Made by a program: the position numbers and the translations under genes. Source: Streptosporangium becharense (lineage in GTDB: Bacteria > Actinomycetota > Actinomycetes > Streptosporangiales > Streptosporangiaceae). Taken from it: a DNA stretch of 64,000 nucleotides. Of this stretch, positions 47,647-64,000 are shown piece after piece; position 1 is the first letter of the stretch; every line of letters begins with the position of its first letter. The DNA is taken from the NCBI RefSeq assembly GCF_014204985.1, contig NZ_JACHMP010000001.1, forward strand, positions 7,068,001 through 7,132,000, given 5' to 3'. The notes beneath the pieces are model-generated. The model worked only from the letters and a program-made list of their open reading frames with translations, had not been told where the DNA came from and ran no database searches.

Positions 47647-47788
47647 CCGTCTCAGCCATGTGAAGCGCCGCCTCAGTAGTGTGCGGCCCCGCCTCAACCA
47701 CGTGGGCTCCGCTTCGGCCGCGTGAAGCGCCGTCTCAGCCACGTGGGCCCCGCCTCAGCTGTGGGAGTACCGCCTCAGCTCTGCGGGG
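47647..47788. repeat. Degenerate ~21-bp minisatellite, seven units
   Basis: Seven units resembling CCGCCTCAGCCACGTGNGCN follow one another at 20-21 bp and fill the gap between spo0M and the sulfotransferase gene, entering its last codons. The gap has no supportable gene. The sequence could be a relic of slippage; whether it acts as a terminator is unclear. Confidence 0.65.
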
Positions 47789-49255: not shown

Positions 49256-50538
49256 CGCGGGCCGCCCGGCGCGATCGTCGCCGGGCCGACCCCCGGGCGG
49301 GGGGTGAAGCGCACCGGCATGCTCTTGTACCCGGCGACGAAGTTCGAGCGCAGGTGCGCGGTCTCGCCCACCACCTCCACCTTCTCCACCAGCCGGGTCA
49401 GCTCCGACAGGAAGATCCGCAGGCCCAGCCGGGCCAGGCCCGCGCCGATGCAGTAGTGCGGGCCGACGCCGAAGGCGACGTGCCGGTTGGGCCGCCTGGC
49501 GATGTCGAACCGGTACGGGTCGCGGAAGACCCGCTCGTCGCGGTTGGCCGACCCCAGCCACACGCTCACCGGCTGGCCCGCCTCGATCTTCCGGCCGGCC
49601 AGCTCCACGTCCCGCTGCGCGTAGCGCATGAAGTGGCTGGCCGGCGACGACCAGCGCAGCACCTCCTCCAGGCACGTGTCGCGCAGCGCGGGGGTCTCGC
49701 ACAGCCGCCGGTACCGCTCGGGGTCCTCGGCCAGCATCCTCACCGCGGTGCACACCGCGTGCGGGGTGGTGACGTTGGCCCCCAGCAGCAGCGCGTAGCA
49801 GTTCAGCATGATCTGCTCGTCCGTCAGCGGGCTCTCCTCCAGGCTCATCGACAGCAGGATGCCGATCAGGTCGTCGGCGGGCGCCGACCGGTCCCGGCGG
49901 GAGATCTCCCGGTTGAAGAAGGCGAACAGCTCGTGGTGGGCCTGGCGCAGCGTGGCCTTGGGCGGGCCGGACGCGAAGTCGGGGTCGTCGTAGGCGATGG
50001 TCATGGTCGTCAGTTCCGACATGCGCGGCCAGTTCTCGCTCGGCATGCCCATGATCTGGCCGGTGAACGCCATCGGGAACATCAGCGCCGCCCGAGCCAG
50101 GTCGAAGACCTCCCCGTCCAGGCCGGGCCGGATCAGGTTGTGCACGACCTCGCGCATCCGCTCCTCCTGCCGCCCCACCGCCTGGCGGGTCAGCGCCCGG
50201 TTGAGCGGGTCGCGCAGCTGCCCGTGCCGGGGAGGGTCGGTGTCGGGCATCATCTGGTCGGAGGCGATGTCGGGCATGCTGAGGTCGATGATGCACAGCA
50301 TGGTGCCGCGCCGTGAGGAGAACTCCTCGTGGTTCTTCAGCACCCGGGTGACCTCCGCGTGCCGGGTGACCACCCAGAACGGCTCGCGTCCGTCGCCCGG
50401 GTCGAACCAGTGCACCGGGTCGTCGGCGCGCAGCCGGGCCCACAGCGCGTGCGGGTCGCCGTCGGCGTAGAAGCCGGAGTCGAGGAAGTCGACGGCCGCG
50501 ACGTCGACGTCGTCGAACGGGGGAACAGAGATCCTCAC
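49252..50538 (-). CDS. Cytochrome P450 with atypical I-helix
   Basis: 428 aa from GTG 50538 (GGAGGG upstream), one base after the carrier-domain stop. The haem loop AFGVGPHYCIGAGLARLGL is intact and ExxR is present (EEVLRW). In the I-helix the usual A-G-x-D/E-T becomes LLLGANVTTPHAVC: the acid is replaced by Val while Thr remains, which suggests altered proton delivery or a substrate-assisted mechanism. The start RISVPPFDDVDVAAVDFLDSGFY is typical of actinomycete P450s. Adjacent to a carrier protein, it may oxidise a carrier-tethered substrate. Confidence 0.92.
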   Translation of the reverse strand: MRISVPPFDDVDVAAVDFLDSGFYADGDPHALWARLRADDPVHWFDPGDGREPFWVVTRHAEVTRVLKNHEEFSSRRGTMLCIIDLSMPDIASDQMMPDTDPPRHGQLRDPLNRALTRQAVGRQEERMREVVHNLIRPGLDGEVFDLARAALMFPMAFTGQIMGMPSENWPRMSELTTMTIAYDDPDFASGPPKATLRQAHHELFAFFNREISRRDRSAPADDLIGILLSMSLEESPLTDEQIMLNCYALLLGANVTTPHAVCTAVRMLAEDPERYRRLCETPALRDTCLEEVLRWSSPASHFMRYAQRDVELAGRKIEAGQPVSVWLGSANRDERVFRDPYRFDIARRPNRHVAFGVGPHYCIGAGLARLGLRIFLSELTRLVEKVEVVGETAHLRSNFVAGYKSMPVRFTPRPGVGPATIAPGGPR

Positions 50539-50539: not shown

Positions 50540-51751
50540 TCAGCCCTCCGAGGTGACCGTCTCGCGCGCCCGCTCCACCGACCGGGCGAGCTCGGCGACC
50601 GTCGTGTTCCGGTAGAAGGTGTGCGCGGTGATCTGCACACCCAGGTCCTGCTCGATCGCGTCGAGCAGTTCGATCGCGAGCAGCGAGTTGCCGCCCAGGG
50701 TGAAGAAGTCGTCGTCGACGCCGACCGCGTCGGTGCGGAGCACGCGCCGGAAGAGCGAGGCGACGTGGTCCCGGGTGCGGTCGCCGGTCGAGGGTGAGGG
50801 CATGACCTGTCCTTTCCTGAGAGCTGATACGCGTCCGGCGGCGTGCCGGACGGCGTCGGCGCTGACCCCGGCCTCCTCCAGGAGCTCGCGGTGTCCCCGC
50901 ACGGCCGTCCCGACGGGGCCGGTGACCGCCACGCGCACGACGGGGCAGGGCACCACCGCCCCCGTCGCCTCCGCCACGGCGTCGCCGAGCCCGCCCTGCG
51001 CGCGGTGCTCCTCGACGGTGACGATCCCGGCGGTCTGCGACGCCGCGGCCAGCACGGCCCCGGAGTCGAAGGGGACGAGGGTGTGGATCTCCAGCACCCG
51101 CGCGCCGATGCCCTCCGCGGCCAGCGCCGCCGCCGCCTCCAGGGCCATCAGCACCGGGTACGGCCCGCACGCGACGATCGTGACGTCGTCGCCGTCGCGC
51201 AGCCGCACCGCCTCGCCGAGGACGAACGGGTGCGCGCCGCGGTGCGGGCCGGGCACCGCCTGGCGGCCCAGCCGCAGGTAGGCGGGGCCCGGCAGGGCGT
51301 GCAGGGCGGAGAGCGCGGCCGGGATCTCCGCCGCGTCGGCGGGCACGACGGCGCTCAGCCCGCCCACGGCGCGCACCACCGCCAGGTCCTCCAGCGCGTA
51401 GTGGGTGGTGCCGAAGTGCGCGGCCGACAGCCCGGCGTGGCTGGCGACGACCCGGACGGGCAGGCCGACCGCCGCCACGTCCAGCTTGAGCTGCTCGGCG
51501 GCCCGCGTGGTGGCGAACGTGGCCATCGTGTGCACGTACGGGACGAACCCCCGGGCGGCCAGCCCGGCGGCCACGCCCATCATGTTGGCCTCGGCGATGC
51601 CCACGTTGAGGTAGCGGTCGGGGAAGGCCCTGGCGAAGGTGCGTTCCAGGCCGCCCATGTCGGTGTCCACGCACACCACCCGGGGGTCGCGGGCGGCCAG
51701 GTCGACCAGTGCCCGCCAGTAGACCTCCCTCGGTGACTCCTCGGCCGTCAC
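50540..51751 (-). CDS. Transketolase C-terminal half fused in frame to a carrier (T) domain
   Basis: 403 aa from GTG 51751, coupled to the N-terminal half. Residues ~1-315 are the pyrimidine-binding and C-terminal transketolase domains (VVCVDTDMGGLERTFARAFPDRYLNVGIAEANMMGVAAGLA; HAGLSAAHFGTTHYALEDLAVVR; GIVTVEEHRAQGGLGDAV). Residues ~317-403 are a carrier domain, VGVDDDFFTLGGNSLLAIELLDAI, with its phosphopantetheine Ser. There is no stop codon between them. AGGAAAGGA stands six bases before an in-frame ATG (50803), so a free 87-aa carrier could also be made. The half-transketolase should transfer a two-carbon ketol unit; fusion versus dual translation is undecided. Confidence 0.85.
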   Translation of the reverse strand: MTAEESPREVYWRALVDLAARDPRVVCVDTDMGGLERTFARAFPDRYLNVGIAEANMMGVAAGLAARGFVPYVHTMATFATTRAAEQLKLDVAAVGLPVRVVASHAGLSAAHFGTTHYALEDLAVVRAVGGLSAVVPADAAEIPAALSALHALPGPAYLRLGRQAVPGPHRGAHPFVLGEAVRLRDGDDVTIVACGPYPVLMALEAAAALAAEGIGARVLEIHTLVPFDSGAVLAAASQTAGIVTVEEHRAQGGLGDAVAEATGAVVPCPVVRVAVTGPVGTAVRGHRELLEEAGVSADAVRHAAGRVSALRKGQVMPSPSTGDRTRDHVASLFRRVLRTDAVGVDDDFFTLGGNSLLAIELLDAIEQDLGVQITAHTFYRNTTVAELARSVERARETVTSEG

Positions 51752-52548
51752 GGCGCGGCCCCCCGTCCCGCGTCGAGCTGGGCCAGGGCCCTGCGCAGCA
51801 GCGGCTCGGTGAGCACGGCGTAGTGCGAGGAGACCTTGCCCTCCAGGAACCGCACGCCCCTGCCCTTGACCGTCCGGGCGATCACGGCCAGCGGGAGCCC
51901 CGACCCGGGCGGGGCGAGGGCGGCGCGCAGCGCCTCGACGTCGTGGCCGTCCACCTCGCGCGTCTCCCAGCCGAAGGCGGTCAGCCGCGCCGCGAGCGGT
52001 TCGAGCCCGACGCACTCCTCTGTCGCGGCGGTCAGCTGCATCCCGTTGCGGTCGACGACCACCGTCAGCCCGCCGAGGCGGCGGTGCCCGGCGAACATCA
52101 GGGCCTCCCACACCGACCCCTCCTGGAGCTCCCCGTCGCCGGCGAGGACGAACACCCGCTCGTCCCGGCCGGCCATGGCGGCGGCCAGGGCCATCCCCGC
52201 CCCCAGGGACACGCCGTGGCCGAGCGAGCCGGTCGGGAACTCCACGCCGGGCAGGCCGCGCGGCGGGTGGCCGAGCAGCCGGCTGCCCGGACGGCCGTAG
52301 GAGTCCACCTCGGCCTCCCCGATCAGGCCCTTCTCGGCCAGCACCGCGTACAGCGCGGGTGCGGCGTGCCCCTTGCTCAGCAGGAACGTGTCGCAGGTGC
52401 GCATCACGTCGAAGTGCAGCGTGGCGAGGATGTCGGCGCACGACAGGCTGCCTCCGACGTGCGCGCCGAGCGGCCCCGCCGCCATCCGCAGGACGCGGCG
52501 GCGCAGCCGGTACGCCACGTCGCGTATCCGTCCGGTCGTGGCGTTCAC
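51748..52548 (-). CDS. Transketolase N-terminal (ThDP-binding) half
   Basis: 266 aa from GTG 52548, overlapping the aminotransferase stop. GGSLSCADILATLHFDVMR, FLLSKGHAAPALYAVL, PTGSLGHGVSLGAGMALA and GDGELQEGSVWEALMFAGHRRL...VVDRNGMQL give the thiamine-diphosphate/Mg2+ motif (GDG...N). With the next gene it forms a split transketolase, as in AmCP-linked pathways, where it adds a hydroxyacetyl unit to the carrier-bound glutamate semialdehyde. GTGA coupling ensures equal synthesis of the halves. Confidence 0.93.
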   Translation of the reverse strand: MNATTGRIRDVAYRLRRRVLRMAAGPLGAHVGGSLSCADILATLHFDVMRTCDTFLLSKGHAAPALYAVLAEKGLIGEAEVDSYGRPGSRLLGHPPRGLPGVEFPTGSLGHGVSLGAGMALAAAMAGRDERVFVLAGDGELQEGSVWEALMFAGHRRLGGLTVVVDRNGMQLTAATEECVGLEPLAARLTAFGWETREVDGHDVEALRAALAPPGSGLPLAVIARTVKGRGVRFLEGKVSSHYAVLTEPLLRRALAQLDAGRGAAP

Positions 52549-53831
52549 GCGGCCCCGCCCCGGGACGAGGCCAGCGACCGGGCCATCCTGCCCACCACGT
52601 CCAGGTGCTCCCACACCTTGGCGAACCCGTCGGCGTACGCGCGCAGCGCCGGGGCCGATCCGGGGTTCAGGTGGCGGCGCTGCAGGCACAGGGAGTCGTC
52701 GAGGACCGCCCGCGCCACCGGGAAGGACGCGGGGTCGCGCGCGGCGTCCCCGCCGGTTCCCTTCGCCGTGAAGGCGGGCTGGTCGGGCAGCGGGACCTCC
52801 TGGTAGCGGGAGACCGGCACGCCCTCCGCGCGCAGCACCCGGTGCAGCGCCCGCCGCACCGCCCCCGCGGGCACGCCGTCGATCCCCAGCTCCTCCGGGA
52901 CGATGCGCACCCGCAGGATGTGCCAGACGTGCGTGCGGTCGGACGGCACGTGGGGCGGACGCAGGCCCGGCAGCCGCCCCAGCCGGTCGAGCAGTTCGCG
53001 GATCCCCGCCTCGCGCCGCCGGGCGTGGTCGTCCATCGCGGCGAGCTGGACGCGCGCCATCGCGGCCTGCACCGGGCTGAGCTTGTGGTTCCAGCCGACC
53101 GCGTGCGCCACGTAGCTGCGGGTGCGCTCCTGGTCCAGCCGCTCCCCGAAGGTGCGCAGCCGCCGCACCGCTCGGTCGACGTCGGCGGAGGAGGTGGTGA
53201 CCAGGCCGCCCTCGCCGCAGGTGGGCAGGTTCTTGCTGGGGTGGAGGCTGAAGCAGCCGGCGTCGCCCAGCGCGCCGGTCCGGGTGCCGCGGTAGCGGGC
53301 GCCGTGCGCCTGGGCGGCGTCCTCGACGACGGCCAGGCCGCGGCGGGCGGCCAGCCGTCCCAGCTCCGCCATGTCGGCCGGCAACCCGTGCAGGTGCACC
53401 GGCAGGAGCGCGGCCGTGCGCGGGCCGGTGACGGCGGCGGCGGCTGCGGGGTCGAGGCAGAACGTGCGCGGGTCGATGTCGGCGAAGACCGGTGTCGCCC
53501 CCTGCTGGGCGACGGCCAGGGCGGTGGCGTTCATGCTGACCGCGGGCACCACCACCTCGTCGCCGGGGCCGACGCCGAGAGCGGCGAGCGCGAGTTGCAG
53601 GGCCGCCGTCCCCGAGCCCACCGCCGCGCAGTGCGCGGCCCCCACGTACCGGGCCCACTCCTCCTCCAGGCCCGCCACCTCCGGTTCGCCCGGCGCGGTC
53701 GCGGTGAGCACGCCGCCGCGCAGGACGCGCAGCACCGCCTCCTCGTCGGCGCGGGTGATCACGGGCCAGCCGGTCTCCCCCACGTCCCGGGGCACCGCCC
53801 GGGGCCCGCCCAGCATCGCCAGTGTGCTCAT
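52545..53831 (-). CDS. DegT/DnrJ/EryC1/StrS-family PLP aminotransferase
   Basis: 428 aa from ATG 53831. The N-terminus has a GGPRAVP...GWPVITRADEEAVLRVLRGG start, VGSGTAALQLAL (PLP phosphate site), VVEDAAQAHGARYRG (Asp to the PLP nitrogen) and the Lys in CFSLHPSKNLPTCGEGG. Enzymes of this family aminate keto groups of sugars or sugar-like compounds. Next to a split transketolase and divergent from LysW genes, it most likely transaminates the ketone made by two-carbon extension, giving the second amino group of a C7 diamino acid. Coupled by 4-bp overlaps to both neighbours. Confidence 0.93.
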   Translation of the reverse strand: MSTLAMLGGPRAVPRDVGETGWPVITRADEEAVLRVLRGGVLTATAPGEPEVAGLEEEWARYVGAAHCAAVGSGTAALQLALAALGVGPGDEVVVPAVSMNATALAVAQQGATPVFADIDPRTFCLDPAAAAAVTGPRTAALLPVHLHGLPADMAELGRLAARRGLAVVEDAAQAHGARYRGTRTGALGDAGCFSLHPSKNLPTCGEGGLVTTSSADVDRAVRRLRTFGERLDQERTRSYVAHAVGWNHKLSPVQAAMARVQLAAMDDHARRREAGIRELLDRLGRLPGLRPPHVPSDRTHVWHILRVRIVPEELGIDGVPAGAVRRALHRVLRAEGVPVSRYQEVPLPDQPAFTAKGTGGDAARDPASFPVARAVLDDSLCLQRRHLNPGSAPALRAYADGFAKVWEHLDVVGRMARSLASSRGGAA

Positions 53832-54817
53832 GTCCGCTCCATCGCCGTCTCGACGTGGTCCAGGGCCTCCTGCCAGCGCCGCAGCAGCGTGCCGCCGTGG
53901 CGGGCGACCGCGGCGGCGGCTGCCGGGGGGTCGGCGGTGCCGTGGGCGGCGGCGACCCGCACCCCGGTCCAGCCGTGGGCGACCAGGTCGACCCAGCGGG
54001 CCGTCTCCGCCAGCGCCGGCCTGCCGAGCGAGCGGGCCGCCCGCGCCAGGAACGCGGCGTGCACCGACGCCTCCGCCTGGGCCGGCCAGCCCGCCGCGTA
54101 CAGTTCGCGCAGCGGCGTGTCGTCACCGCCGGCGACGCGCTCCGGCAGGCCGCCGAGCAGGGACGACAGGGCCGGGAGCCCCTCGCCGCGCAGCGCGGCG
54201 AGGTTGTCCGCCAGCCGGTCGCGCAGCCACGGCCAGGTCAGCTCGGGCTGCGGGCCGAGCACGCGCACCTCCAGCCACCGCCAGGCCGGGCTGCTGCCGG
54301 CGAAGAACGGGTCGCTGCCGTCGTCCGGGTTGGCCGAGGCCCGCGCGCGCTCCAGCACCTCGCGGGGGAGCGGGCCGCGGAAGGCCGGCGGCATCGGGTC
54401 GAGGACGGCGTAGGCGTCCGCGGCCGGGTCGCGGCCCTCGACGACCACCAGGTGGCCGGCGTGGACGTCGTGGTAGGCGGGACGGAACGGCAGGTGGTAG
54501 TTGTCCACCGCCACGATCGGGGTCAGGCCGCGGGCGAGGGCCTCGTCGAGCTGCGCGCGGCCCTCGCCGGCGGAGGCCGGGACGTGCCAGACCATGTCCA
54601 GCGGGTGGTAGAGGCCGAAAGCCGCCGACAGCGAGCCGAGCCGGGGGTGGAAGTACTCCACCGGCTCCCATGACCCGCTGTCCCAGGTGAAGCGCCACCC
54701 GGTCCCCATGGCCTGGAGCGCGTCCCAGCCGCGGGCCGCCAGGACGTGGGCCACGTCGACCTGCAGGCAGCTGCACAGGTCGTCGTACCAGATCTCGCTC
54801 CGCGTCGCGGTGATCAC
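53828..54817 (-). CDS. BtrH N-terminal-like protein, function unknown
   Basis: 329 aa from GTG 54817, overlapping the upstream gene's stop. The N-terminal ~130 residues (EIWYDDLCSCLQVDVAHVLAARGWDA...VEYFHP...VDNYHLPFRP...HAGHLVVVEGRD) look like the BtrH-N/C39-peptidase-like fold: Cys near residue 11-13, then His and Asp-Asn motifs. The C-terminal ~190 residues are helical, Ala/Leu-rich. BtrH itself transfers acyl groups from a carrier to an amine. Alternatively, with the 198-aa neighbour, this could be the counterpart of the two-protein aziridine-forming enzymes of vazabitide and azinomycin. The fold is moderately supported; the role is open. Confidence 0.6.
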   Translation of the reverse strand: MITATRSEIWYDDLCSCLQVDVAHVLAARGWDALQAMGTGWRFTWDSGSWEPVEYFHPRLGSLSAAFGLYHPLDMVWHVPASAGEGRAQLDEALARGLTPIVAVDNYHLPFRPAYHDVHAGHLVVVEGRDPAADAYAVLDPMPPAFRGPLPREVLERARASANPDDGSDPFFAGSSPAWRWLEVRVLGPQPELTWPWLRDRLADNLAALRGEGLPALSSLLGGLPERVAGGDDTPLRELYAAGWPAQAEASVHAAFLARAARSLGRPALAETARWVDLVAHGWTGVRVAAAHGTADPPAAAAAVARHGGTLLRRWQEALDHVETAMERT

Positions 54818-55591: not shown

Positions 55592-55768
55592 TTGAATATC
55601 GTCGAGAAAATTGCCTGCCCCGAGTGCGGGGACGCGGTGCCGGCCGCCGGGGCGGAGCCGGCCGAGATCGTGGTCTGCCCGGGGTGCGCGGCCGACCTGG
55701 AGGTCGTGGCGGTGGACCCGGTCGTGCTGGCGCTCGCCCCTGAGATCGAAGAGGACTGGGGTGAGTGA
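55592..55768 (+). CDS. lysW: LysW-like amino-group carrier protein (AmCP)
   Basis: 58 aa from TTG 55592 with AGGAG six bases upstream. Two zinc-knuckle pairs are visible: IACPECGD and VVCPGCAA. The C-terminus is exactly the AmCP signature EDWGE, whose last Glu gamma-carboxyl is ligated to the alpha-amino group of the substrate amino acid by LysX. The body is acidic, as in other carriers. It protects and hands on intermediates of lysine, arginine or specialised diamino acids. It is first in the plus-strand operon, overlapping lysX by 8 bp. The operon lies in an NRPS cluster, so a secondary-metabolite role is far likelier than primary lysine synthesis. Confidence 0.95.
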   Translation: MNIVEKIACPECGDAVPAAGAEPAEIVVCPGCAADLEVVAVDPVVLALAPEIEEDWGE

Positions 55769-56609
55769 GAGCGTCGCCGTCGTCTCCTCGACGCTCCGGG
55801 TGGAGGAGAAGCATCTCCTCGCCGCGCTGCGCGGGCGTGGGGTGCCGGTCGTGCACGTCGACGACCGGACGCTCGCCTACCGGGTGGGGGCACCCCCGCC
55901 GCCCTGGCGGCTGGTCCTCAACCGGAGCGCCGCCGCGACCCGCCGCCTGGAGGTCAGCCGGATCTGCGAGGCGTGGGGGATACCCGTGGTCAACGGCACC
56001 GCCACGGTCGGCACCTGTGACAACAAGATCGCCACCACCCTGGCGTTGGCCCGCCACGGCCTGCCCGTCCCGGTGACCGCGGTGGCGCTCACCCCACAGG
56101 GCGGGATGGGGGCGGTGCGGGAGGTGGGCCTGCCCGCGGTGCTCAAACCGGTCAACGGCTCCTGGGGGCGGGGACTGTGCAGGCTCAACGACGACGACGC
56201 GGTGGAGGGCGTGCTGGCCCTGCGCGGGGAGGCGCCCTCGCCGGTCCAGAGGCTGGTGTACGTCCAGGAGTTCGTGCGGACCCCCGGGCGGGACATCCGC
56301 GTCCTCGTGGCCGGCGACCGCGTGGTCGCCGCCATGTACCGGCGCTCCGCGCACTGGGTCGTCAACACCGCCCGGGGTGCCTCGGTCGAGGCGTGCCCGC
56401 TCACCGGGGAACTGGAGTCCCTGGCGCTGCGCGCCGCCGCCGCCGTCGGCGGGGGCATCCTCGGCGTCGACCTCATGGAGCACCACGACGGCCGGCTGGT
56501 CGTCGGCGAGGTGAACTGCGGGGTGGAGTTCCACGGCCTGATGGAGGTCGCCGGTGACGTCGCCGGCGCACTGGTCGACTACGCGCTCGAACAGGAGGAG
56601 ACGGCATGA
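55761..56609 (+). CDS. lysX: LysX-like ATP-grasp ligase (glutamate to AmCP)
   Basis: 282 aa from GTG 55761, within the lysW end. RimK-type ATP-grasp: VVSSTLRVEEKHLL start, NGTATVGTCDNKIATTLALARHGLPVP, VLKPVNGSWGRGLCRL (phosphate-binding loop), YVQEFVRTPGRDIRVLVAGDRVVAAMYR and GEVNCGVEFHGL (Mg2+-binding Glu/Asn). It joins the amino group of an amino acid, most likely glutamate, to the C-terminal Glu of LysW with ATP. Length fits the family. Overlaps the next gene by ATGA. Confidence 0.93.
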   Translation: MSESVAVVSSTLRVEEKHLLAALRGRGVPVVHVDDRTLAYRVGAPPPPWRLVLNRSAAATRRLEVSRICEAWGIPVVNGTATVGTCDNKIATTLALARHGLPVPVTAVALTPQGGMGAVREVGLPAVLKPVNGSWGRGLCRLNDDDAVEGVLALRGEAPSPVQRLVYVQEFVRTPGRDIRVLVAGDRVVAAMYRRSAHWVVNTARGASVEACPLTGELESLALRAAAAVGGGILGVDLMEHHDGRLVVGEVNCGVEFHGLMEVAGDVAGALVDYALEQEETA

Positions 56610-57628
56610 GGGCCGTCGTGCTCGGAGGCACCGGCTACGTCGGGGGAGAGCTGATCCGGCTCCTGCTGCACCACCCGAAGATCGAACTCGCCCAGGCCGC
56701 CTCGCGGCGCCTGGCGGGCCGGCCGTTGCGCCTGGCCCACCCCAACCTCCGCCACGTCCGCCACCTCGCCTTCACCGACCCCGCGGATCTGCGTCCGGCG
56801 GACGTGCTGTTCTGCGCGCTGCCGCCCGGGGAGACCGCGGCCATGCGGCACCGGCTGGCCGGTCTCGCCGACGTCGTCGTGGATCTCAGCCCCGACTTCA
56901 GGCTCCGCGACCAGCAGACGCACGAGCGGGTCTACGGGCCCGCCCCCGGCCGGGCCGAGGCCGCCGCCGCGTTCGTCCCCGGCCTGCCGGAGCTGTACCG
57001 GGATCGGCTCGCCGGCGCCCGGCGGGTCAGCGTGCCCGGCTGCATGGCGACGGCCGCCATCCTCGCCCTCACCCCGCTGGCCGAGGCCGGACTCGTCGAG
57101 GGTGAGGCCCTGGTGGACGCGCGCACCGGCTCCAGCGGCTCGGGCGCCACCGCGACGGCGGCCTCGCACCACGCCGAACGCGCCGGCGCGATGCGCGTCT
57201 ACGGGCCCGCCGGCCACCGCCACGAGGCGGAGATCTCCCAGGCGTGCGGCGTCACCGCCCGGATGACCGTCACGGCCGTCCCCCGGGTACGGGGCGTGCA
57301 GGTCGTTGCGCACGTCAGCCCGCGCCGCCCGATCTCCCGCGCCGAACTGCTCGCCCTGTTCCGCGGGCGTTACGCTGGCGAGCCCTTCGTCCGGCTGGTC
57401 GCCGACCGCTCGGGCGTCCACCGGATGCCGGACCCGAAGATCCTCGACGGTGCGAACTTCTGCGACATCGGGGTGGCCGCGGACGCCGACGGCAGGCGTG
57501 TCGTCGTCGTGGCCGCCCTGGACAACCTGGTCAAGGGGGCGGCGGGCGGCGCGGTGCAGAGCGCCAACCTCGCCCTCGGCCTGGACGAGACAGCCGGGCT
57601 GGACTTCCCCGGCCTGCACCCGGTCTGA
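56606..57628 (+). CDS. lysY: LysY/ArgC-like AmCP-glutamyl-phosphate reductase
   Basis: 340 aa from ATG 56606. The NADPH motif is VVLGGTGYVGGELIRLLL; the catalytic Cys is in VSVPGCMATAAILAL, and the His region is RTGSSGSGATATAASHHAER. The C-terminal DNLVKGAAGGAVQSANLALGL is invariant in ArgC/LysY. It reduces the carrier-bound gamma-glutamyl phosphate to the semialdehyde that the transketolase would extend. The gene is upstream of its kinase partner, with a 10-bp gap. Primary ArgC of arginine synthesis is the alternative, but the LysW/LysX context decides. Confidence 0.94.
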   Translation: MRAVVLGGTGYVGGELIRLLLHHPKIELAQAASRRLAGRPLRLAHPNLRHVRHLAFTDPADLRPADVLFCALPPGETAAMRHRLAGLADVVVDLSPDFRLRDQQTHERVYGPAPGRAEAAAAFVPGLPELYRDRLAGARRVSVPGCMATAAILALTPLAEAGLVEGEALVDARTGSSGSGATATAASHHAERAGAMRVYGPAGHRHEAEISQACGVTARMTVTAVPRVRGVQVVAHVSPRRPISRAELLALFRGRYAGEPFVRLVADRSGVHRMPDPKILDGANFCDIGVAADADGRRVVVVAALDNLVKGAAGGAVQSANLALGLDETAGLDFPGLHPV

Positions 57629-57638
57629 GGAGGACGGC

Positions 57639-58448
57639 GTGCTTGTGGTCAAGGTTGGCGGGCGGGCGGAGGCCGGCCCGGTGCTCGACGACGTCGCCCG
57701 CCTGCACCGGCGGGACCGGCCCGTCGTGCTCGTCCACGGCGGGGGCGCCCAGACCGACGAACTGGCCGGGCGGCTCGGTCAGCGGGTCGCGCACATCCAC
57801 GCCCCCGACGGCACCCGCAGCCGCAGGACCGACGCCGCCGCGCTGCGGACCCTGACCATGGCCCTGCTCGGCCAGGTCAAACCCGCCCTGGTGGACGGTC
57901 TGCGCCGCCGCGGCGTGCCCGCGGCCGGGCTGAGCGGCGCCGACGGGCCCGTCGTCCTGGCGGAGCGGAAGGAGGCGTTGCGCTCCGTCGTGAACGGCCG
58001 GGTGCGGATCGTCCGCGACGACCTGAGCGGCCGGATCAGCCGGGTCGACCCCGGTCTGCTGCACGCCCTGCTGGAGCGGGGGATCGTGCCGGTCCTGTCG
58101 CCGCCGGCCGCCGGCGCGGGCGGCGGGCTGCTCAACGTGGACGCCGATCGGATGGCCGCCGCGGTCGCCGTCGCCCTGGGTGCCGAACAGCTCGTCTACC
58201 TCACCGAGGTGCCCGGCCTGCTGCGTGACCCCGCCGACCCGTCCTCCCTGCTGCCCCGGGTGGAGCTGCCCGCCGGCCCGGAGCTCGCCGCGGTCCGCGG
58301 CCGGATGCGGCACAAGGTCCGCGCCGCCGCCGAGGCCCTGGCCGGCGGGGTGCGGGACGTCGTGGTGGCCGGCACCGCGACGCCCGCCCCGGTCACCGCG
58401 GCGCTGGACGGCGCCGGCACGGTGCTCACCGCGGGGAGGGCCCGGTGA
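57639..58448 (+). CDS. lysZ: LysZ/ArgB-like AmCP-glutamate kinase
   Basis: 269 aa from GTG 57639 (GAGGAGGACGGC upstream). Amino-acid kinase fold: VVKVGGRAE, VVLVHGGGAQTDELAGRLG, NVDADRMAAAVAVALGAEQLVYLTEVPGLL, and MRHKVRAAAEALAGGVRDVVV. It phosphorylates the side-chain carboxylate of carrier-bound glutamate for LysY. The N-terminus is short and starts directly at the first beta strand. Overlaps the deacylase by GTGA. Confidence 0.93.
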   Translation: MLVVKVGGRAEAGPVLDDVARLHRRDRPVVLVHGGGAQTDELAGRLGQRVAHIHAPDGTRSRRTDAAALRTLTMALLGQVKPALVDGLRRRGVPAAGLSGADGPVVLAERKEALRSVVNGRVRIVRDDLSGRISRVDPGLLHALLERGIVPVLSPPAAGAGGGLLNVDADRMAAAVAVALGAEQLVYLTEVPGLLRDPADPSSLLPRVELPAGPELAAVRGRMRHKVRAAAEALAGGVRDVVVAGTATPAPVTAALDGAGTVLTAGRAR

Positions 58449-59557
58449 AACCCTCCGGCGAGTACGCCGCCTGGCTGCTGCGCGGGCTGCTGTCGATCCC
58501 GTCCGTCTCCGGCGAGGAGGGCAGGGCCGCCGCCTTCGCGGCCGACCAGATGAGCCGGCTGGGCATGCGGGCCCGGGTGGACGAGATCGGGAACGCCGTC
58601 GGGGAGGCGGGCCCGCCCGGCGCGCCGACCGTGCTGCTGCTCGGCCACATCGACACCGTCCCCGGCCGCCTGGCGGTCTGCCAGGTCGGGGACCTGCTCT
58701 ACGGTCGCGGCGCCGTCGACGCCAAGGGACCGCTGGCCGCGATGATCTGCGCCGGGGCCGCGGCGGCGTCCGCCGGCGTGCGCGTGGTGGTGGTCGGCGC
58801 GGTGGGCGAGGAGGTCCCCGGCTCGCGGGGCACCCGGCACCTGCTCCGCACCCTGCCCCGGCCCGACGCGGTGGTCATCGGCGAGCCGAGCGGCTGGGAC
58901 GGCGTCTGCCTCGGCTACAAGGGCCGCGTCGGCGTGGTCTACGACGTCAGACGCACCGCCATGCACACCAGCAGCCCCGAGGAGACGGCGGTCGAGGCCG
59001 CCGCCCTGTTCTGGACGCGGGTGGAGGACTACGTCCGGCGGCTGCCGGGGGCGGGCGACGCCGTACGGTTCGACGCCTGCTCCGCCACCCTGGTGGACCT
59101 GCGGGGCGACATCCGGCAGGCCCACGCCCGGATCACCTGCCGGGTGCCGGAGGGGTTCGACTTCGACGCCTTCCACCGCTTCGTGAAGTGGGCCGCGGTG
59201 CAGGCCGAGGCGCGCTTCGACGAGCGGGTCCCCGCGGTGCGCCGCGGGCTCGGCGACCCGGCCGCGCGGGCCCTGCGGGCGGCGATCCGCGAGCACGGCG
59301 GCACCCCCGCGACCAAGCTCAAGGCCGGCACCTCCGACATGAACGTGGTGGCCGAGCACTGGGACGTCCCCATGGTCGCCTACGGCCCCGGCGACGCCCA
59401 CCTCGACCACACCGACGACGAACACATCGCCATCCCCGACCTGTACCGCTCGGTCGCGGTCCTCGGCTCGGCGCTGCGCACCCTCGGCCGCCTGACGGCC
59501 GGTCCCGTACGCCGCGACGAGCTCACCCCCACCGCCGGCCGCCGATCCCTCCCGTGA
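58445..59557 (+). CDS. lysK: LysK-like M20 metallopeptidase, releases product from AmCP
   Basis: 370 aa from GTG 58445. Zinc-peptidase M20 motifs are: LLGHIDTVPG (metal His and Asp), LYGRGAVDAKGPLAAM, GAVGEEVPGSRG (Glu-Glu), VIGEPSGWD, and GTSDMNVVAEHWDVPMVAYGPGDAHLDHTDDEHI near the end. LysK enzymes hydrolyse the isopeptide-type bond between the carrier Glu and the amino group, freeing the finished amino acid. Fits as the last step of the carrier pathway before NRPS loading. Confidence 0.93.
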   Translation: MKPSGEYAAWLLRGLLSIPSVSGEEGRAAAFAADQMSRLGMRARVDEIGNAVGEAGPPGAPTVLLLGHIDTVPGRLAVCQVGDLLYGRGAVDAKGPLAAMICAGAAAASAGVRVVVVGAVGEEVPGSRGTRHLLRTLPRPDAVVIGEPSGWDGVCLGYKGRVGVVYDVRRTAMHTSSPEETAVEAAALFWTRVEDYVRRLPGAGDAVRFDACSATLVDLRGDIRQAHARITCRVPEGFDFDAFHRFVKWAAVQAEARFDERVPAVRRGLGDPAARALRAAIREHGGTPATKLKAGTSDMNVVAEHWDVPMVAYGPGDAHLDHTDDEHIAIPDLYRSVAVLGSALRTLGRLTAGPVRRDELTPTAGRRSLP

Positions 59558-59564
59558 GGAGACC

Positions 59565-60389
59565 ATGCGAAGCCTCGACGGCAAGACTGTGATGATCACC
59601 GGCGCGGCGAGAGCGCTCGGCCGGTCGCACGCCCTGCTCTTCGCCGAGCACGGCGCCGACCTGCTCCTCGTCGACCTCTGCAAGGAGCGGCAGGGACCCT
59701 ACCCGCTGTCCACCCGCAGGCAGCTGGAGGAGACGGCCCGCGAGTGCCGCAGGAGCGGCGGCACCGTCGTCACCGCCGCGGCCGACGTGCGCGAGCAGAA
59801 GGAGGTGGACGAGGCCGTCGCCGCCGGGCTGACCGAGTTCGGCCGCATCGACGTGCTCGTCAACAACGCCGGGCTGCTCGCCCCCGGCGGCGTCCTCTCC
59901 CACCGGCTCAGCGAGCAGGAGTGGGAGCTCGTCATCGACGTCAACCTCAACGGGACCTGGCGGTGCTGCCGGGCCGTGCTGCCGGGGATGGTGGAGCGGC
60001 GCGCCGGCGCCATCGTCAACACCGCGTCCACCGGCGGGCTGATCGCCTACGAGATGTTCTCCAGCTACGTCGCCTCCAAGCACGCCGTGGTCGGGCTGAC
60101 CAAGGCGCTCGCCCTGGAGTACGGCCGCCACGGCGTCCGCGTCAACGCGGTGTGCCCCTCCACCGTCCGGGCCGAGGAGGCCCTCGGCAGCCGCAGCACC
60201 GCCGCCGTCGCCGAGTCGGTCGGCACCTCCCTCGACGACTACGAGGCCGGTTCGGCCTCCTTCCACGCGCTGCGCCGCCTGGTGACGGCCGAGGAGGTGT
60301 CCAGGGCGTGCCTGTGGCTGGCCGGTGACCAGTCGTCCGGGGTCACCGGCACCGCCATGGTCGTCGACGCCGGATACACCGCCCGCTGA
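59565..60389 (+). CDS. Short-chain dehydrogenase/reductase, resembling mycofactocin-coupled SDRs
   Basis: 274 aa from ATG 59565 (GAGGAGACC upstream). MITGAARALGRSHALLFAEHG is the cofactor loop (TGxxxxxGR), LVNNAG is present, and the catalytic Ser/Tyr-Lys are in VNTASTGG and SSYVASKH. The segment VDLCKERQGPYPLSTRRQLEE between beta-2 and alpha-3 resembles the extra loop of SDRs with tightly bound NAD that use mycofactocin. It may adjust the oxidation state of the carrier-derived amino acid or its hydroxyl. No mycofactocin genes are in view. Sits between lysK and the Thr-type NRPS. Confidence 0.9.
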   Translation: MRSLDGKTVMITGAARALGRSHALLFAEHGADLLLVDLCKERQGPYPLSTRRQLEETARECRRSGGTVVTAAADVREQKEVDEAVAAGLTEFGRIDVLVNNAGLLAPGGVLSHRLSEQEWELVIDVNLNGTWRCCRAVLPGMVERRAGAIVNTASTGGLIAYEMFSSYVASKHAVVGLTKALALEYGRHGVRVNAVCPSTVRAEEALGSRSTAAVAESVGTSLDDYEAGSASFHALRRLVTAEEVSRACLWLAGDQSSGVTGTAMVVDAGYTAR

Positions 60390-60407: not shown

Positions 60408-63400
60408 ATGACGCCCCAGGACGACCTGCAGACCCGGCTCGCCGCGCTCTCCCCGGAACGGCGTGCCCTCCTCGAACGCCTCCTCGCCGGAAGCGGCGAC
60501 GTCGAGGCCCCGATCCGGCCCCGCGAGGCCGGGCGGACCACGCTGCCGCTCTCCTACGAGCAGGAACGCCTGTGGTTCATGGACCGGTTGCTGCCCAACC
60601 GGGAGGTCTTCCACGTCCCCACCGCGCTGCGGCTGCGCGGGGACGTCGACGTGGCGGCGCTGCGCGCGGCGCTGACCGCCCTGGTGGCGCGGCACGAGGT
60701 GCTGCGCACGGTCTTCGCCGAGGAGGGCGGCGCCCCCGTGCAGCGGGTGCTGCCCCGGCTGGAGCCGCCGCTGCGGGTGGCGGACGCCTCCGGCGCCGCC
60801 GACCCGGACGGGCGGGCCCTGGAACTGGCCACCGAGACGATCCTCGAACCGTTCGACCTCGGCGCCGGCCCCCTCATCCGGGCCGGGCTGTACCGGGTGG
60901 CGCCACGCGAGCACCTGTTCGTCATCGTCCAGCACCACATCGTCTCCGACTACTGGTCGCTCGGCATCCTGCTCGCCGACCTGGGTGCCCTCTACGGCCG
61001 CGAACTCGGCCTCACCCAGGCGCCCCCCGCGCCGTCGCTGCACTACGCGGACTTCGCCCGCTGGCAGCGTGAGACCCTGACCGGCGACCGGCTCGCCGCG
61101 GCCCTCGACTTCTGGCGCGAGACCCTCGACGGGGCGCCCGAGCTGCTCGACCTGCCCACCGACCGGCCCCGCTCCCGGATCAGACACACCCGCGGGGAGA
61201 TCCTGCCGGTCGCCTTCGACGGCGAGCTGGTACAGCGGGTCCGCGCGCTGGCCAAGGAGGCGGCGACCACCCTCACCGTCGCCTTCCTCGCCGGCTACGT
61301 GGCCACCCTGTCCCGGCACGTCCGCCAGGACGACATCGTCGTCGGGGTGCCGATCGCCGGCCGAGGCCGCCCCGAGACGCAGCAGATGATCGGGTACTTC
61401 CTCAACTGGCTGCCCGTCCGCGTGCACGTCGGGGACGGCCCCGGCCTGCGCGTCCTGGTCGCCCGGGTGCGGGACGCCTTCGCGGCGGCCTTCGCCCGCC
61501 AGGACCTGCCCTTCGAGATGCTCGTGCAGACCCTCCAGCCGCCGCGCCACCTGGGCACAACCCCGGTCTTCCAGACCTCCTTCAGTCTCCGCGACGCCGC
61601 ACCGGAACCGCCCGCCCTGCCCGGCCTGACCGCCGAACTGGCCGACCTCGGCAAGGGCGCCACCCACTACGACCTGATGGCCGAGCTGTGGTGCGAGGGT
61701 GAGCGCGTCGTCGGGTACCTGCCCTACAACGACGAGCTCTTCGACGCCGAGACCGTCGCCCGGTTCGCCCGGCGGATGACGCGGCTGCTGGCGGAGGGGA
61801 CACTCGAACCCGACCGGCCGGTCCGCGCTCTGCCCCTGCTGGGGGAGGACGGGACACCCGAGGCGTCCGCCGTGCCGCCCTCCCGCGAGGTGGACGCCGC
61901 CGCGACCCTGCACGGGTGGTTCGCCGAGGTGGCCGCGGCCACGCCCGCCGCCGTCGCCGTGGTGTGCGAGGACGAGCGGCTCACCTACGCCGAGCTGGAC
62001 GAGCGGGCCAACCGGCTCGCGCACGCCCTGCGCGAGCGGGGCGCCGGACCCGGCCGGTGTGTGGGCGTCTGCCTGGAACGCTCGTCCGACCTCGTCGTCG
62101 GCCTCCTCGGCGTGCTCAAGAGCGGGGCCGGATACGTCCCGCTCGACCCCGACAACCCGGCGGCGCGCAGCGCCCGCCAGCTCTCCGACACCGCGGCCGT
62201 CGCGGTGGTCACCACGGCGGGGCTGGCCGACCGGCTGCCCGGCGGCCTGCCCGCCGTCCGCCTCGATGCGGACGCCGCCGAGCTGGCCGCCCGCCCCGCG
62301 ACGCCGCCCGCCGTCCGCTCCCACCCGCTGGACCTCGCCTACGTCATCCACACCTCGGGCTCCACCGGCCTGCCCAAGGGGGTGGCCGTCACCCACGCCA
62401 ACGTGGTGCGGTTGCTGCGAGGGGCTCAGGAGTCGTTCGGGTTCGGGCCGGACGACGTGTGGACCCTGTTCCACTCGTGCGCCTTCGACTTCTCCGTGTG
62501 GGAGCTGTGGGGGTCGTTGCTCAACGGCGGGCGGCTCGTCGTGGTGCCGCACTGGATGCTGCGCGCTCCCGACGAGCTGGCCCGGCTGCTCGCCGCCGAG
62601 GGCGTGACCGTGCTCAACCAGACCCCGTCCGCCTTCGCGCAGCTCAGCCGGGTGATCCTCCGGGACGAGCCGGACCTCGCGCTGCGTCACGTCGTCTTCG
62701 GCGGCGAGGCACTCGACCCGGCGTCCCTGGCGCCGTGGATCGCCCGGTACGGCGACGCCTCCCCGCGCCTGGTCAACATGTACGGGATCACCGAGACCAC
62801 GGTGCACGTCACCTACCGGCCGATCACCCGCGCCGACCTGGAGACGGGCGGGTCGCCGATCGGGGAGCCGCTGCCCGACCTCGGGCTGTACGTGCTGGAC
62901 GGCCTGCTCCGGCCCGCCCTGTCCGGTGTCGTCGGCGAGCTCTACGTCGGCGGCGCCGGGCTCGCCCGCTGCTACGTCGCCGACCCGGCCCGCACCGCCG
63001 ACCGGATGCTGCCCGACCCCTACGCGGGCGTGCCGGGTGCCCGGATGTACCGCACCGGTGACCTGGCGCGGCGCCTGCCCTCGGGCGAGGTGCTCTACCA
63101 GGGGCGTGCCGACGACCAGGTGAAGATCCGCGGGCACCGCATCGAGCTGGGCGAGATCCAGGCCGCACTGGGCAGGCTGCCCGGCGTCGCCGGGTGCGCC
63201 GTCGCGGTCCGCGACGACGGCCCGGCGGGCCCGCGCCTGTCGGCCTACGTCGTCCCCGCCGACGGCGCCGCCCCCTCGGCCGGGGACCTGCGGCGCGGCC
63301 TGCTCGCCACCCTGCCCGAGTGGATGGTGCCCGCCCTGTTCGTGACCGTGGACGCGCTGCCGCTGACCCGCAACGGCAAGCTCGACCACCGCGCTCTGCG

Positions 63401-63773
63401 TGCCCTGGACGTCGCGCACGCCGGCCGTGAACGCCCCCACGTGCCGCCGCGCGGCGAGACCGAGCAGGCGCTGGCCGCGATCTGGCGGGAACTGCTGGAC
63501 GTCGGACGCGTCGGCGTGGACGACGGTTTCTTCGAGCTCGGCGGGCACTCGCTGATGGCGGTGCAGCTCGTCTCGCTCATCCGCGAGCGGCTGGGGGCGG
63601 AGCTCCCCATCGCGGTGCTCTTCCAGCACCCCACCCTGGAGGCCATGGCCGGGGCGGTCGACGCCGCGGCGGCCGGTGAGGCCACGACGGCCGTCGACAC
63701 CGAGGCGCTGGTCGCCGACCTGAGCGAGGCCGAGGTGGACGCGATGCTCGCCGCGCTCGGCGACGACGGCTGA
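60408..63773 (+). CDS. NRPS module C-A(Thr)-T
   Basis: 1121 aa, ATG 60408 with AGGAG upstream. The C domain has HHIVSDYWS (~residue 175; Gly of HHxxxDG is Tyr). The A domain has HTSGSTGLPKGV (~648), FDFSVWELW (~694), VLNQTPSAF, VVFGGEAL, NMYGITETTVHV (~790), YRTGDLARRLPSGE and GRADDQVKIRGHRIELGE. The pocket read by alignment to GrsA is D-F-W-N-V-G-M-V-H(-K), one residue from the standard threonine code. The carrier has FFELGGHSLMAVQL (Ser ~1045). A short acidic tail ends the protein. It follows the LysW pathway in the same operon, so Thr is probably joined to the diamino-acid unit or its neighbour. Confidence 0.95.
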   Translation: MTPQDDLQTRLAALSPERRALLERLLAGSGDVEAPIRPREAGRTTLPLSYEQERLWFMDRLLPNREVFHVPTALRLRGDVDVAALRAALTALVARHEVLRTVFAEEGGAPVQRVLPRLEPPLRVADASGAADPDGRALELATETILEPFDLGAGPLIRAGLYRVAPREHLFVIVQHHIVSDYWSLGILLADLGALYGRELGLTQAPPAPSLHYADFARWQRETLTGDRLAAALDFWRETLDGAPELLDLPTDRPRSRIRHTRGEILPVAFDGELVQRVRALAKEAATTLTVAFLAGYVATLSRHVRQDDIVVGVPIAGRGRPETQQMIGYFLNWLPVRVHVGDGPGLRVLVARVRDAFAAAFARQDLPFEMLVQTLQPPRHLGTTPVFQTSFSLRDAAPEPPALPGLTAELADLGKGATHYDLMAELWCEGERVVGYLPYNDELFDAETVARFARRMTRLLAEGTLEPDRPVRALPLLGEDGTPEASAVPPSREVDAAATLHGWFAEVAAATPAAVAVVCEDERLTYAELDERANRLAHALRERGAGPGRCVGVCLERSSDLVVGLLGVLKSGAGYVPLDPDNPAARSARQLSDTAAVAVVTTAGLADRLPGGLPAVRLDADAAELAARPATPPAVRSHPLDLAYVIHTSGSTGLPKGVAVTHANVVRLLRGAQESFGFGPDDVWTLFHSCAFDFSVWELWGSLLNGGRLVVVPHWMLRAPDELARLLAAEGVTVLNQTPSAFAQLSRVILRDEPDLALRHVVFGGEALDPASLAPWIARYGDASPRLVNMYGITETTVHVTYRPITRADLETGGSPIGEPLPDLGLYVLDGLLRPALSGVVGELYVGGAGLARCYVADPARTADRMLPDPYAGVPGARMYRTGDLARRLPSGEVLYQGRADDQVKIRGHRIELGEIQAALGRLPGVAGCAVAVRDDGPAGPRLSAYVVPADGAAPSAGDLRRGLLATLPEWMVPALFVTVDALPLTRNGKLDHRALRALDVAHAGRERPHVPPRGETEQALAAIWRELLDVGRVGVDDGFFELGGHSLMAVQLVSLIRERLGAELPIAVLFQHPTLEAMAGAVDAAAAGEATTAVDTEALVADLSEAEVDAMLAALGDDG

Positions 63774-63829: not shown

Positions 63830-64000
63830 ATGGAGGATGTCCCGCTGTCCCTGACCCAGGAACAGCTCTGGTTCGCCGAGGCGCTGGAGAGCGACCGCAC
63901 GCTCTACACCGAGGGGGCCGGGCTGCGCGTGCGCGGCCGGCTCGACGTGGACGCGCTGTCGCGTGCCCTGCACGCCGTCGTGACCCGGCACGAGATCCTG
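63830..64000 (+). CDS. NRPS, N-terminal condensation domain, cut by window end
   Basis: Only 57 codons are visible from ATG 63830 (GAGAGGAACGGCC upstream). PLSLTQEQLWFAEALESD, then GLRVRGRLDVDALSRALHAVVTRHEIL, is the C1 core region of a condensation domain (S-x-x-Q-x-x-L-W). It starts 56 bp after the Thr module, so the operon and the assembly line continue past the window. Confidence 0.9.
   Translation, partial: MEDVPLSLTQEQLWFAEALESDRTLYTEGAGLRVRGRLDVDALSRALHAVVTRHEIL

What the first reader, a model, noticed from the sequence alone, without database searches (positions are those of the whole stretch)
55592..60389. AmCP (LysW-type) pathway embedded in an NRPS cluster
LysW (EDWGE terminus), LysX, LysY, LysZ and LysK homologues form one operon, divergent from a split transketolase and a DegT aminotransferase and followed by NRPS genes. 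Known AmCP-based secondary pathways (vazabitide A, ficellomycin, azinomycin B) use this set to make a C7 diamino-dihydroxy acid. The NRPS content here (C*-A-T, C-A*-T-TE, A-KR-T, Thr module) is not one I can match to those products, so the metabolite may be new.
Basis: partly seen in the sequence, partly recalled or inferred. Interest (0 to 1): 0.88.

Follow-up and report, generated by a model that had tools for sequence, protein, structure and literature searches.

The report
Azinomycin-type aziridine cluster, type II cap
These genes look like a bacterial pathway for a DNA-attacking antibiotic of the azinomycin kind, in which the usual enzyme for the flat aromatic end seems to have been replaced by a different class of enzyme, so the compound may well be a new one.

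Summary
In detail: 55592-59557 is a LysW-X-Y-Z-K operon (59565-60389 is an SDR). The NRPS content can be placed: Thr C-A-T, C-T-C like AziA2, AziA1-like cap loader, P450, TE, two acyl-CoA dehydrogenases and an AlkZ-like glycosylase are azinomycin-type. In a tree of 83 AziU3 homologues the window joins a 7-member clade beside azinomycin. Three members have an AziB-like type I PKS and a Thr module with reductase domain; the other three (Streptomyces) and the window have no AziB orthologue, no such domain, but a conserved type II PKS and C-A*-T-TE. The cap loader's pocket and kinship follow the PKS type. Best reading: an azinomycin-type alkylator capped by a type II polyketide acid. Here a 16-kb CRISPR-Cas stretch separates the two cluster halves, which abut in all six relatives. 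The PKS link is inferred from co-localisation and loader kinship; no product or expression data exist here.

The parts
55592..55768 (+). LysW, amino-group carrier protein, EDWGE end
   Evidence: Pfam PF21344 49 bits; one match in genome
55761..56609 (+). LysX, ATP-grasp ligase (Glu onto LysW, inferred)
56606..57628 (+). LysY, acyl-phosphate reductase
57645..58448 (+). LysZ, carrier-bound amino-acid kinase
58445..59557 (+). LysK, M20 hydrolase releasing the product from LysW (role inferred)
59565..60389 (+). SDR, candidate oxidation of the Thr hydroxyl (inferred)
   Evidence: 66-76% in azinomycin proxy, G032, G140, S. plumbidurans, S. filamentosus
60408..63773 (+). NRPS1 C-A-T, Thr-type pocket DFWNVGMVH, no reductase domain
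63830..64000 (+). NRPS2 C-T-C (AziA2-like), start only; runs to 67150 outside the window
   Evidence: 42% in azinomycin proxy; AziA2 described as C-PCP-C in PMC3778384
54814..55410 (-). AziU2 homologue, subunit of aziridine-forming enzyme
   Evidence: PDB 8gs1_A/7wuw_A, E 1.4e-40
53828..54817 (-). AziU3 homologue, subunit of aziridine-forming enzyme
   Evidence: PDB 8gs1_B/7wuw_C, E 8e-60; alignment; tree
52545..53816 (-). DegT-type aminotransferase
51748..52518 (-). transketolase N half
50540..51751 (-). transketolase C half fused to a carrier (PP-binding) domain; the carrier is a separate gene in S. filamentosus and the azinomycin proxy
49252..50538 (-). cytochrome P450, 57-72% in relatives
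48497..49255 (-). thioesterase (stand-alone)
47775..48500 (-). sulfotransferase (makes the sulfate leaving group, inferred)
27652..31413 (+). A-KR-T NRPS; abuts the sulfotransferase gene in six relatives
26694..27506 (+). thioesterase
23551..26697 (+). NRPS C-A-T, pocket DVFDFGGVT
22155..23333 (-). acyl-CoA dehydrogenase 1
21121..22158 (-). acyl-CoA dehydrogenase 2
20319..20975 (+). thioesterase (alignment to S. filamentosus reaches back to 20226)
15322..19344 (+). NRPS C-A*-T-TE, A domain degenerate; also degenerate in S. filamentosus
13984..15261 (+). MFS transporter
13718..13957 (+). MbtH-like protein
12874..13527 (+). O-methyltransferase; no counterpart in the seven relatives compared
11448..12701 (-). 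cytochrome P450; no clear orthologue in the seven relatives (best hits are the other P450s)
8364..11273 (-). AziA1-like A-T cap loader with partial C domain; pocket GTAFMG without the amino-acid Asp
31554..47582 (.). intervening stretch: CNNM pair, type I-E CRISPR-Cas (cas genes 36340-45507; arrays 34320-35995 and 45719-46300), Spo0M; not part of the pathway
   Evidence: absent between A-KR-T and ST in six relatives

Best explanation
A split gene cluster for an azinomycin-type DNA alkylator. LysX loads Glu onto LysW; LysZ and LysY make the semialdehyde; the split transketolase adds C2; the DegT enzyme aminates it; the sulfotransferase sulfates the neighbouring hydroxyl; the AziU2/U3 pair closes the aziridine by sulfate loss; LysK releases the product from LysW. 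NRPS modules join this amino acid to a Thr unit (NRPS1, SDR) and to a unit handled by A-KR-T, probably a hydroxy acid. The aromatic cap, made in azinomycin by the iterative type I PKS AziB, is here made by the neighbouring type II PKS (window coordinates 67259 to about 89800, outside the window) and loaded by the AziA1-like A-T protein. The chain leaves through a thioesterase instead of a reductase. An AlkZ-like DNA glycosylase (90027-91136) gives self-resistance. Shown: gene identities, synteny, tree, domain and pocket differences. Inferred: every reaction, the order of units, the release step, and that the type II product is the cap.
For: AziU3/AziU2 homology to solved proteins. Sulfotransferase and complete LysWXYZK plus TK and AT. 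Tree: window in a 7-row clade, SH-aLRT 100, apart from the 8-row clade of the solved AziU3. Azinomycin proxy (NRRL S-340, AziU3 94%) shares 22 of the window's genes: A-T loader, MFS, C-T-C, both TK halves, AT, LysW/X/Y/Z/K, SDR, NRPS1, MbtH, U2, U3, ST, P450, TE, both ACADs, AlkZ-like; it also has sulfate-activation genes. S. filamentosus holds the cluster uninterrupted plus 14 genes of the type II PKS set at 42-77% identity; S. kebangsaanensis and NRRL F-6492 carry 13 or more of these too, without an ACP hit. AziB orthologues (73%, 63%) in G366 and G368; none in G000, G364, G365, G367, whose best-scoring hits are 37-42% (single-domain pieces up to 46%) and lie outside the cluster. Reductase domain and KS-AT-DH-KR-ACP Pfam-shown in all four AziB clusters examined: G032, G140, S. 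plumbidurans, S-340; NRPS1 of the window has none. AlkZ-like gene lies next to NRPS2 in S. filamentosus, S. kebangsaanensis, S. plumbidurans, G032 and G140, but beyond the PKS in G000, so in G000 the PKS sits inside the cluster. Cap-loader pocket GTAF(M/I)G in 4 of 4 type II clusters, GIHFTG in 3 of 3 AziB clusters read (G140 not read). The loaders of S. plumbidurans and G032 are 68-69% identical to the azinomycin proxy's but 50-52% to the window's, although by U3 they are the window's kin: the loader follows the PKS type. AlkZ-like protein keeps a QAQ motif.
Against: No metabolite, expression or enzyme data. The type II link rests on two lineages in effect (three closely related Streptomyces, and the window). 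Similar type II core genes also stand without this cluster (S. kebangsaanensis C41, S. plumbidurans C177). The PKS set looks like that of free actinorhodin/angucycline-like products. No step that makes an aromatic acid was identified. The window's O-methyltransferase has no counterpart, and its P450 at 11448 no clear orthologue, in seven relatives, so cap tailoring by them is doubtful. The A domain in C-A*-T-TE is degenerate, and the standalone A domain that may serve it in S. filamentosus has no orthologue in G000 (best 45%, elsewhere). The 16-kb interruption could have disturbed expression.
Confidence: 0.66

Rival explanations
1. Two independent clusters side by side: an azinomycin-type aziridine NRPS cluster and an actinorhodin/angucycline-like type II PKS cluster, making two separate compounds.
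For: The type II genes include their own SARP regulator, a transporter and oxygenases and are kin of aromatic PKSs that stand alone. Adjacent unrelated clusters are common (general knowledge).
Against: In G000 the PKS sits between NRPS2 and the AlkZ-like gene, in the Streptomyces at the other end beyond MFS/MbtH, yet it stays linked; in the eight genomes compared AziB orthologue and linked type II PKS exclude each other; the cap loader follows the PKS type.
Confidence: 0.25
2. The cluster makes a known compound: azinomycin A/B, vazabitide A or ficellomycin.
For: Same aziridine gene set and much shared NRPS content with the azinomycin proxy.
Against: No AziB orthologue in G000; NRPS1 lacks the reductase domain found in the proxy; A-KR-T, the C-A-T at 23551 and C-A*-T-TE absent from the proxy stretch; U3 clade distinct. 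Vazabitide and ficellomycin clusters were not fetched.
Confidence: 0.04
3. The LysWXYZK genes are housekeeping lysine or arginine biosynthesis placed here by chance.
For: LysY and LysZ hit arginine/lysine families.
Against: Operon sits with transketolase, AziU2/U3 and sulfotransferase; the same block recurs beside NRPS genes in many species; one LysW in the genome.
Confidence: 0.01
4. The cluster is a relic: the CRISPR-Cas stretch broke it and it no longer makes its product (can hold together with the main reading of its ancestry).
For: 16.4 kb between 31413 and 47775 where six relatives have under 0.3 kb; A* domain degenerate and no partner A domain seen.
Against: The break lies between two convergent genes that both align over nearly their whole length to S. 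filamentosus; A* is degenerate in S. filamentosus as well. That each half keeps its own promoters is inference.
Confidence: 0.15

Closest known systems
Azinomycin B cluster (S. sahachiroi); proxy used here: Streptomyces sp. NRRL S-340 (L079/G368)
   Same: 22 shared genes: AmCP genes, split transketolase, aminotransferase, AziU2/U3, sulfotransferase, P450, TE, ACAD pair, SDR, Thr C-A-T, C-T-C, AziA1-like A-T, MFS, MbtH, AlkZ-like glycosylase
   Different: No AziB orthologue; Thr module without reductase domain; additional A-KR-T, C-A-T and C-A*-T-TE; type II PKS; loader pocket differs; U3 40% identical
Vazabitide A cluster (AmCP-based; recalled, cluster not fetched)
   Same: LysW-type route and the Vzb10/11 aziridine enzyme (recalled; PMC9570651 passages link vazabitide A with AmCP)
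   Different: NRPS and PKS content not compared here
S. filamentosus JCM 4122 cluster (L044/G364); no product known to me
   Same: Same genes in largely the same order, 38-77% identity, with the same type II PKS set
   Different: Uninterrupted; PKS at the other end; cap loader placed elsewhere in the cluster; no O-methyltransferase or 11448-type P450; extra standalone A domain, ornithine cyclodeaminase, amine oxidase and aminotransferase genes
AziB-bearing sister clusters: S. plumbidurans, Nocardiopsis alkaliphila (G140), G032
   Same: A-KR-T, C-A-T, ACADs, ST, U2/U3, AmCP genes, NRPS1, C-T-C, AlkZ-like gene
   Different: Iterative type I PKS and Thr module with reductase domain; no C-A*-T-TE hit and no type II PKS in the stretches fetched

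Membership tests
AmCP-based (LysW) secondary amino-acid pathway | LysW with EDWGE end plus LysX, LysY, LysZ, LysK | tested here: met
AmCP-based (LysW) secondary amino-acid pathway | Transketolase and aminotransferase for the C7 acid | tested here: met
   (genes only; reaction not tested)
AmCP-based (LysW) secondary amino-acid pathway | LysX adds Glu to LysW | not testable with these tools
   needs enzyme assay
AziU3/AziU2 aziridine synthase | Both subunits homologous over most of their length and adjacent | tested here: met
AziU3/AziU2 aziridine synthase | Closes an aziridine by sulfate loss | not testable with these tools
   sulfotransferase gene present
Azinomycin cluster (strict) | AziB iterative type I naphthoate PKS | tested here: not met
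   no orthologue in G000
Azinomycin cluster (strict) | Thr module with C-terminal reductase domain (as in the azinomycin proxy) | tested here: not met
   (C-A-T only, 1121 aa); proxy C-A-T-R
Azinomycin cluster (strict) | C-PCP-C module | tested here: met
   PMC3778384
Azinomycin cluster (strict) | AlkZ-type glycosylase in the cluster | tested here: met
   90027-91136, outside the window; QAQ motif
Type II polyketide cluster (actinorhodin/angucycline-like) | KSalpha, KSbeta, ACP, KR, aromatase/cyclase | tested here: met
Type II polyketide cluster (actinorhodin/angucycline-like) | Its product is the acyl cap of the peptide | not testable with these tools
   inference from co-localisation and cap-loader kinship
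Housekeeping LysW lysine/arginine pathway | Operon with lysine/arginine genes, no secondary genes | tested here: not met

The most novel reading that the evidence does not exclude
A hybrid pathway class: an azinomycin-type aziridine peptide capped by a type II aromatic polyketide, so that one molecule would join a flat quinone-like polyketide to an AmCP-derived aziridine alkylator, with coordinated exchange of PKS class, cap loader and release domain, kept in two actinomycete families.
Probability: 0.6. Interest if true: 0.75.

Novelty: new variant of a known kind. Interest (0 to 1): 0.62.

Why it matters
If true, it shows that the aromatic end of azinomycin-type DNA alkylators can be exchanged between an iterative type I and a type II PKS, together with the loader and the release domain: a natural example of how such hybrids are rebuilt. 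It also points to named strains (S. filamentosus JCM 4122, S. kebangsaanensis SUK12) with an uninterrupted cluster in which a new alkylating natural product, and its resistance glycosylase, can be looked for.

Tried and rejected
Housekeeping Lys/Arg origin: rejected (one LysW, neighbours). Vazabitide and ficellomycin clusters: not fetched, so no direct comparison. Viral contigs searched twice, for U3 and for A-KR-T: no relative found. G366:C2 stretches were a wrong guess of contig and were not used. The carrier fused to the transketolase first looked special, but it is a separate neighbouring gene in S. filamentosus and the azinomycin proxy. The BtrH_N hit of 53828-54817 (57 bits) suggested an acyltransferase; the AziU3 match (206 bits) is far stronger. 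The rubiginone paper (PMC8487521) holds the word AziU3 only in a reference title. To learn whether the 16-kb stretch is an insertion I looked at the CNNM pair in same-genus genomes: orthologues at 75-80% in 3 of the 15 other genomes, with no cas, Spo0M or orthologous BGC genes beside them; what happened in G000 stays open.

Counts and limits: 101 loci encoding U3 relatives were found in genome contigs, the best 80 kept. The order-wide search scored only 6 first-look candidates a genome, so its 18 of 345 (own genome included) is a lower bound. NRRL F-6492 ends at LysK, so its NRPS1, NRPS2 and AlkZ-like gene were not seen. Pocket letters come from MAFFT alignments of 10 and 8 A domains; positions after the sixth differed between the two alignments for the loaders and are not used; G140's loader was missed by my gene caller. 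Thr code and Asp rule are recalled. The presence table uses bit-score thresholds of my own, and loci cut by contig ends count as misses.
Full report
What is there. The genome gave one LysW match. Divergent from it, in order, are 54814-55410, 53828-54817, a DegT aminotransferase, both transketolase halves, a P450, a thioesterase and a sulfotransferase at 47775-48500.

The decisive missed genes. 53828-54817 matches AziU3 (8gs1_B E 8e-60, 7wuw_C E 9e-60) over residues 3-326 of 329, and 54814-55410 matches AziU2 (8gs1_A, 7wuw_A; E about 1e-40) over residues 19-196 of 198. A review says that the diamino-dihydroxy acid is sulfated and that the neighbouring amino group then displaces the sulfate to give the aziridine (PMC9570651, passages). 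That AziU3/U2 and Vzb10/11 are the enzymes is recalled from Kurosawa et al. 2022, which I did not read. With the sulfotransferase present, the gene set reaches the aziridine, not only the C7 acid.

Relatives. AziU3 homologues occur in 18 of 345 genomes of the window's order, own genome included, and 101 loci were found in the collection of 84,980 species, the best 80 kept. Of those 80, 79 have a U2 homologue, 62 LysX, 54 LysW, and 29 all 11 core genes within the fetched stretch. In a tree of 83 U3 sequences the window falls in a clade of 7 (SH-aLRT 100) with S. plumbidurans, G032, Nocardiopsis alkaliphila (G140), S. filamentosus, S. kebangsaanensis and NRRL F-6492; the solved AziU3 lies in another clade of 8.

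Azinomycin comparison. NRRL S-340 (AziU3 94% identical) served as azinomycin proxy. It shares 22 of the window's genes: A-T loader, MFS, C-T-C, both transketolase halves (with a separate carrier gene), aminotransferase, LysW, LysX, LysY, LysZ, LysK, SDR, NRPS1, MbtH, U2, U3, sulfotransferase, P450, TE, both ACADs and AlkZ-like; it also has the AziB-like PKS and sulfate-activation genes. AziA2 is described as C-PCP-C and needed for azinomycin (PMC3778384, first of two parts read); the C-T-C at 63830-67150 has this unusual layout. AziA1 is described as a two-domain NRPS that activates the naphthoate made by AziB and tailored by P450 AziB1 and methyltransferase AziB2 (PMC9570651, passages). The A-T part of 8364-11273 is 43-48% identical to the A-T proteins of the proxy, S. 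plumbidurans, G032 and G140. A P450 and an O-methyltransferase stand beside it, but the O-methyltransferase has no hit in the seven relatives compared and the P450's best hits there are other P450s, so I do not lean on them. A-KR-T, C-A-T (23551) and C-A*-T-TE are not in the proxy stretch.

The PKS swap. All four AziB clusters examined (G032, G140, S. plumbidurans, S-340) have a KS-AT-DH-KR-ACP protein and a Thr module ending in a reductase domain (only the C-terminal 426 residues of S. plumbidurans NRPS1 were scanned). AziB orthologues at 73% (S. plumbidurans) and 63% (S-340) were found with the G032 protein as query; in G000, S. filamentosus, S. kebangsaanensis and F-6492 the best-scoring type I PKS hits are 37-42% (single-domain pieces up to 46%) and lie outside the cluster. 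These four instead carry a conserved type II PKS. In S. filamentosus 14 genes of it match the window's neighbourhood: KSalpha 77%, KSbeta 64%, ACP 42%, KR 76%, aromatase/cyclase 58%, SnoaL-like 56%, MBL 61%, ABM 57%, SARP 48%, phosphotransferase-like 56%, flavin reductase 56%, luciferase-like 71%, MDR 67% and P450 69%. F-6492 has 13 of these and S. kebangsaanensis 13 plus three further genes, both without an ACP hit. KSalpha is closest among solved proteins to actinorhodin KS, the cyclase to BexL. The same four have C-A*-T-TE, and the Thr modules of the window, S. filamentosus and S. kebangsaanensis have 1121-1142 residues against 1517-1541 in the AziB group.

Cap loader. The first six pocket letters read GTAFMG in the window and GTAFIG in S. 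filamentosus, S. kebangsaanensis and F-6492, against GIHFTG in S-340, G032 and S. plumbidurans. None has the Asp that holds an alpha-amino group, while NRPS1 reads DFWNVGMVH, the Thr code with one change (code recalled). So the loader takes an acid that is not an ordinary amino acid. The loaders of S. plumbidurans and G032 are 68-69% identical to that of the azinomycin proxy and only 50-52% to the window's, which is 66% to the Streptomyces type II group; yet by U3 S. plumbidurans and G032 belong with the window. The loader thus goes with the PKS type, which is my main support, beside synteny, for the type II product being the cap.

Resistance. An AlkZ-like gene (PF06224, 165 bits) lies at 90027-91136; relatives at 50-55% stand next to NRPS2 in S. 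filamentosus, S. kebangsaanensis, S. plumbidurans, G032 and G140, and one lies at the cluster end in the proxy. It has VQAQ, the Q-x-Q form that a figure legend gives for part of the AZL proteins (PMC9040887, passages). In G000 the type II PKS lies between NRPS2 and this gene. A phosphotransferase-like gene (81008-82108) recalls AziR, described as an aminoglycoside transferase that gives azinomycin resistance (PMC9570651); I did not compare the two, and the proxy stretch gave no hit to it.

The interruption. In six relatives the A-KR-T and sulfotransferase genes face each other with gaps between BLAST hits of 49 to 266 bases (G032 49, G140 49, S. kebangsaanensis 144, S. plumbidurans 154, S. 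filamentosus 184, F-6492 266). In the window the gap is 16.4 kb and holds a CNNM gene pair, a type I-E CRISPR-Cas system with two arrays, and Spo0M. G+C falls to 0.63-0.68 between 36 and 46 kb. An assembly error cannot be excluded.

What is not shown. No product, no enzyme assay, no expression. The order of units is open. What the C-A-T at 23551 (pocket DVFDFGGVT) takes is unknown; the aziridine amino acid, dehydrogenated by the ACAD pair, is my guess. The degenerate A* domain has no visible partner in G000. Papers: nine searches of the open PMC library, seen as listings, plus passages of three papers and part of a fourth, showed no report of a type II PKS joined to an azinomycin-type cluster; subscription papers are mostly not in that library.

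Verdict. The AmCP reading is confirmed and extended: an azinomycin-type aziridine cluster (about 0.93), with the cap made by a type II PKS (about 0.65). New variant of a known kind.

Noticed in passing
window 34320-46300: Type I-E CRISPR-Cas with two arrays in opposite orientation on either side of cas3-cse1-...-cas1-cas2; it lies between the two halves of the biosynthetic cluster.
   Followed up: partly
window 35784-35934: Two neighbouring spacers of the first array are identical: a duplicated spacer.
   Followed up: no
window 31554-33934: CNNM (CorC-like) gene pair; orthologues at 75-80% in 3 same-genus genomes without cas or orthologous BGC genes beside them; a second, 56% copy elsewhere in the genome.
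   Followed up: partly
window 50540-51751: Transketolase C half fused to a carrier domain; one continuous match also in Nocardiopsis alkaliphila, separate genes in S. filamentosus and the azinomycin proxy.
   Followed up: yes
L135:143-3539 and L134:12761-14356 (S. filamentosus): Ornithine cyclodeaminase, amine oxidase, second DegT aminotransferase and a standalone A domain with a pocket that looks proline-like (code recalled), not found in G000's cluster: perhaps an extra building block in the Streptomyces version.
   Followed up: partly
L162:7882-10633 (NRRL S-340): EF-Tu-like GTPase, PAPS-reductase-family and APS kinase genes inside the azinomycin-type cluster: dedicated sulfate activation would fit aziridine closure through a sulfate ester.
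   Followed up: no
L084, L085, L086, L100: AziU2/U3 pairs with NRPS and ACAD genes but no LysW hit in the fetched stretch (L085 and L086 are cut by contig ends): perhaps the AmCP genes lie elsewhere, or the substrate differs.
   Followed up: no
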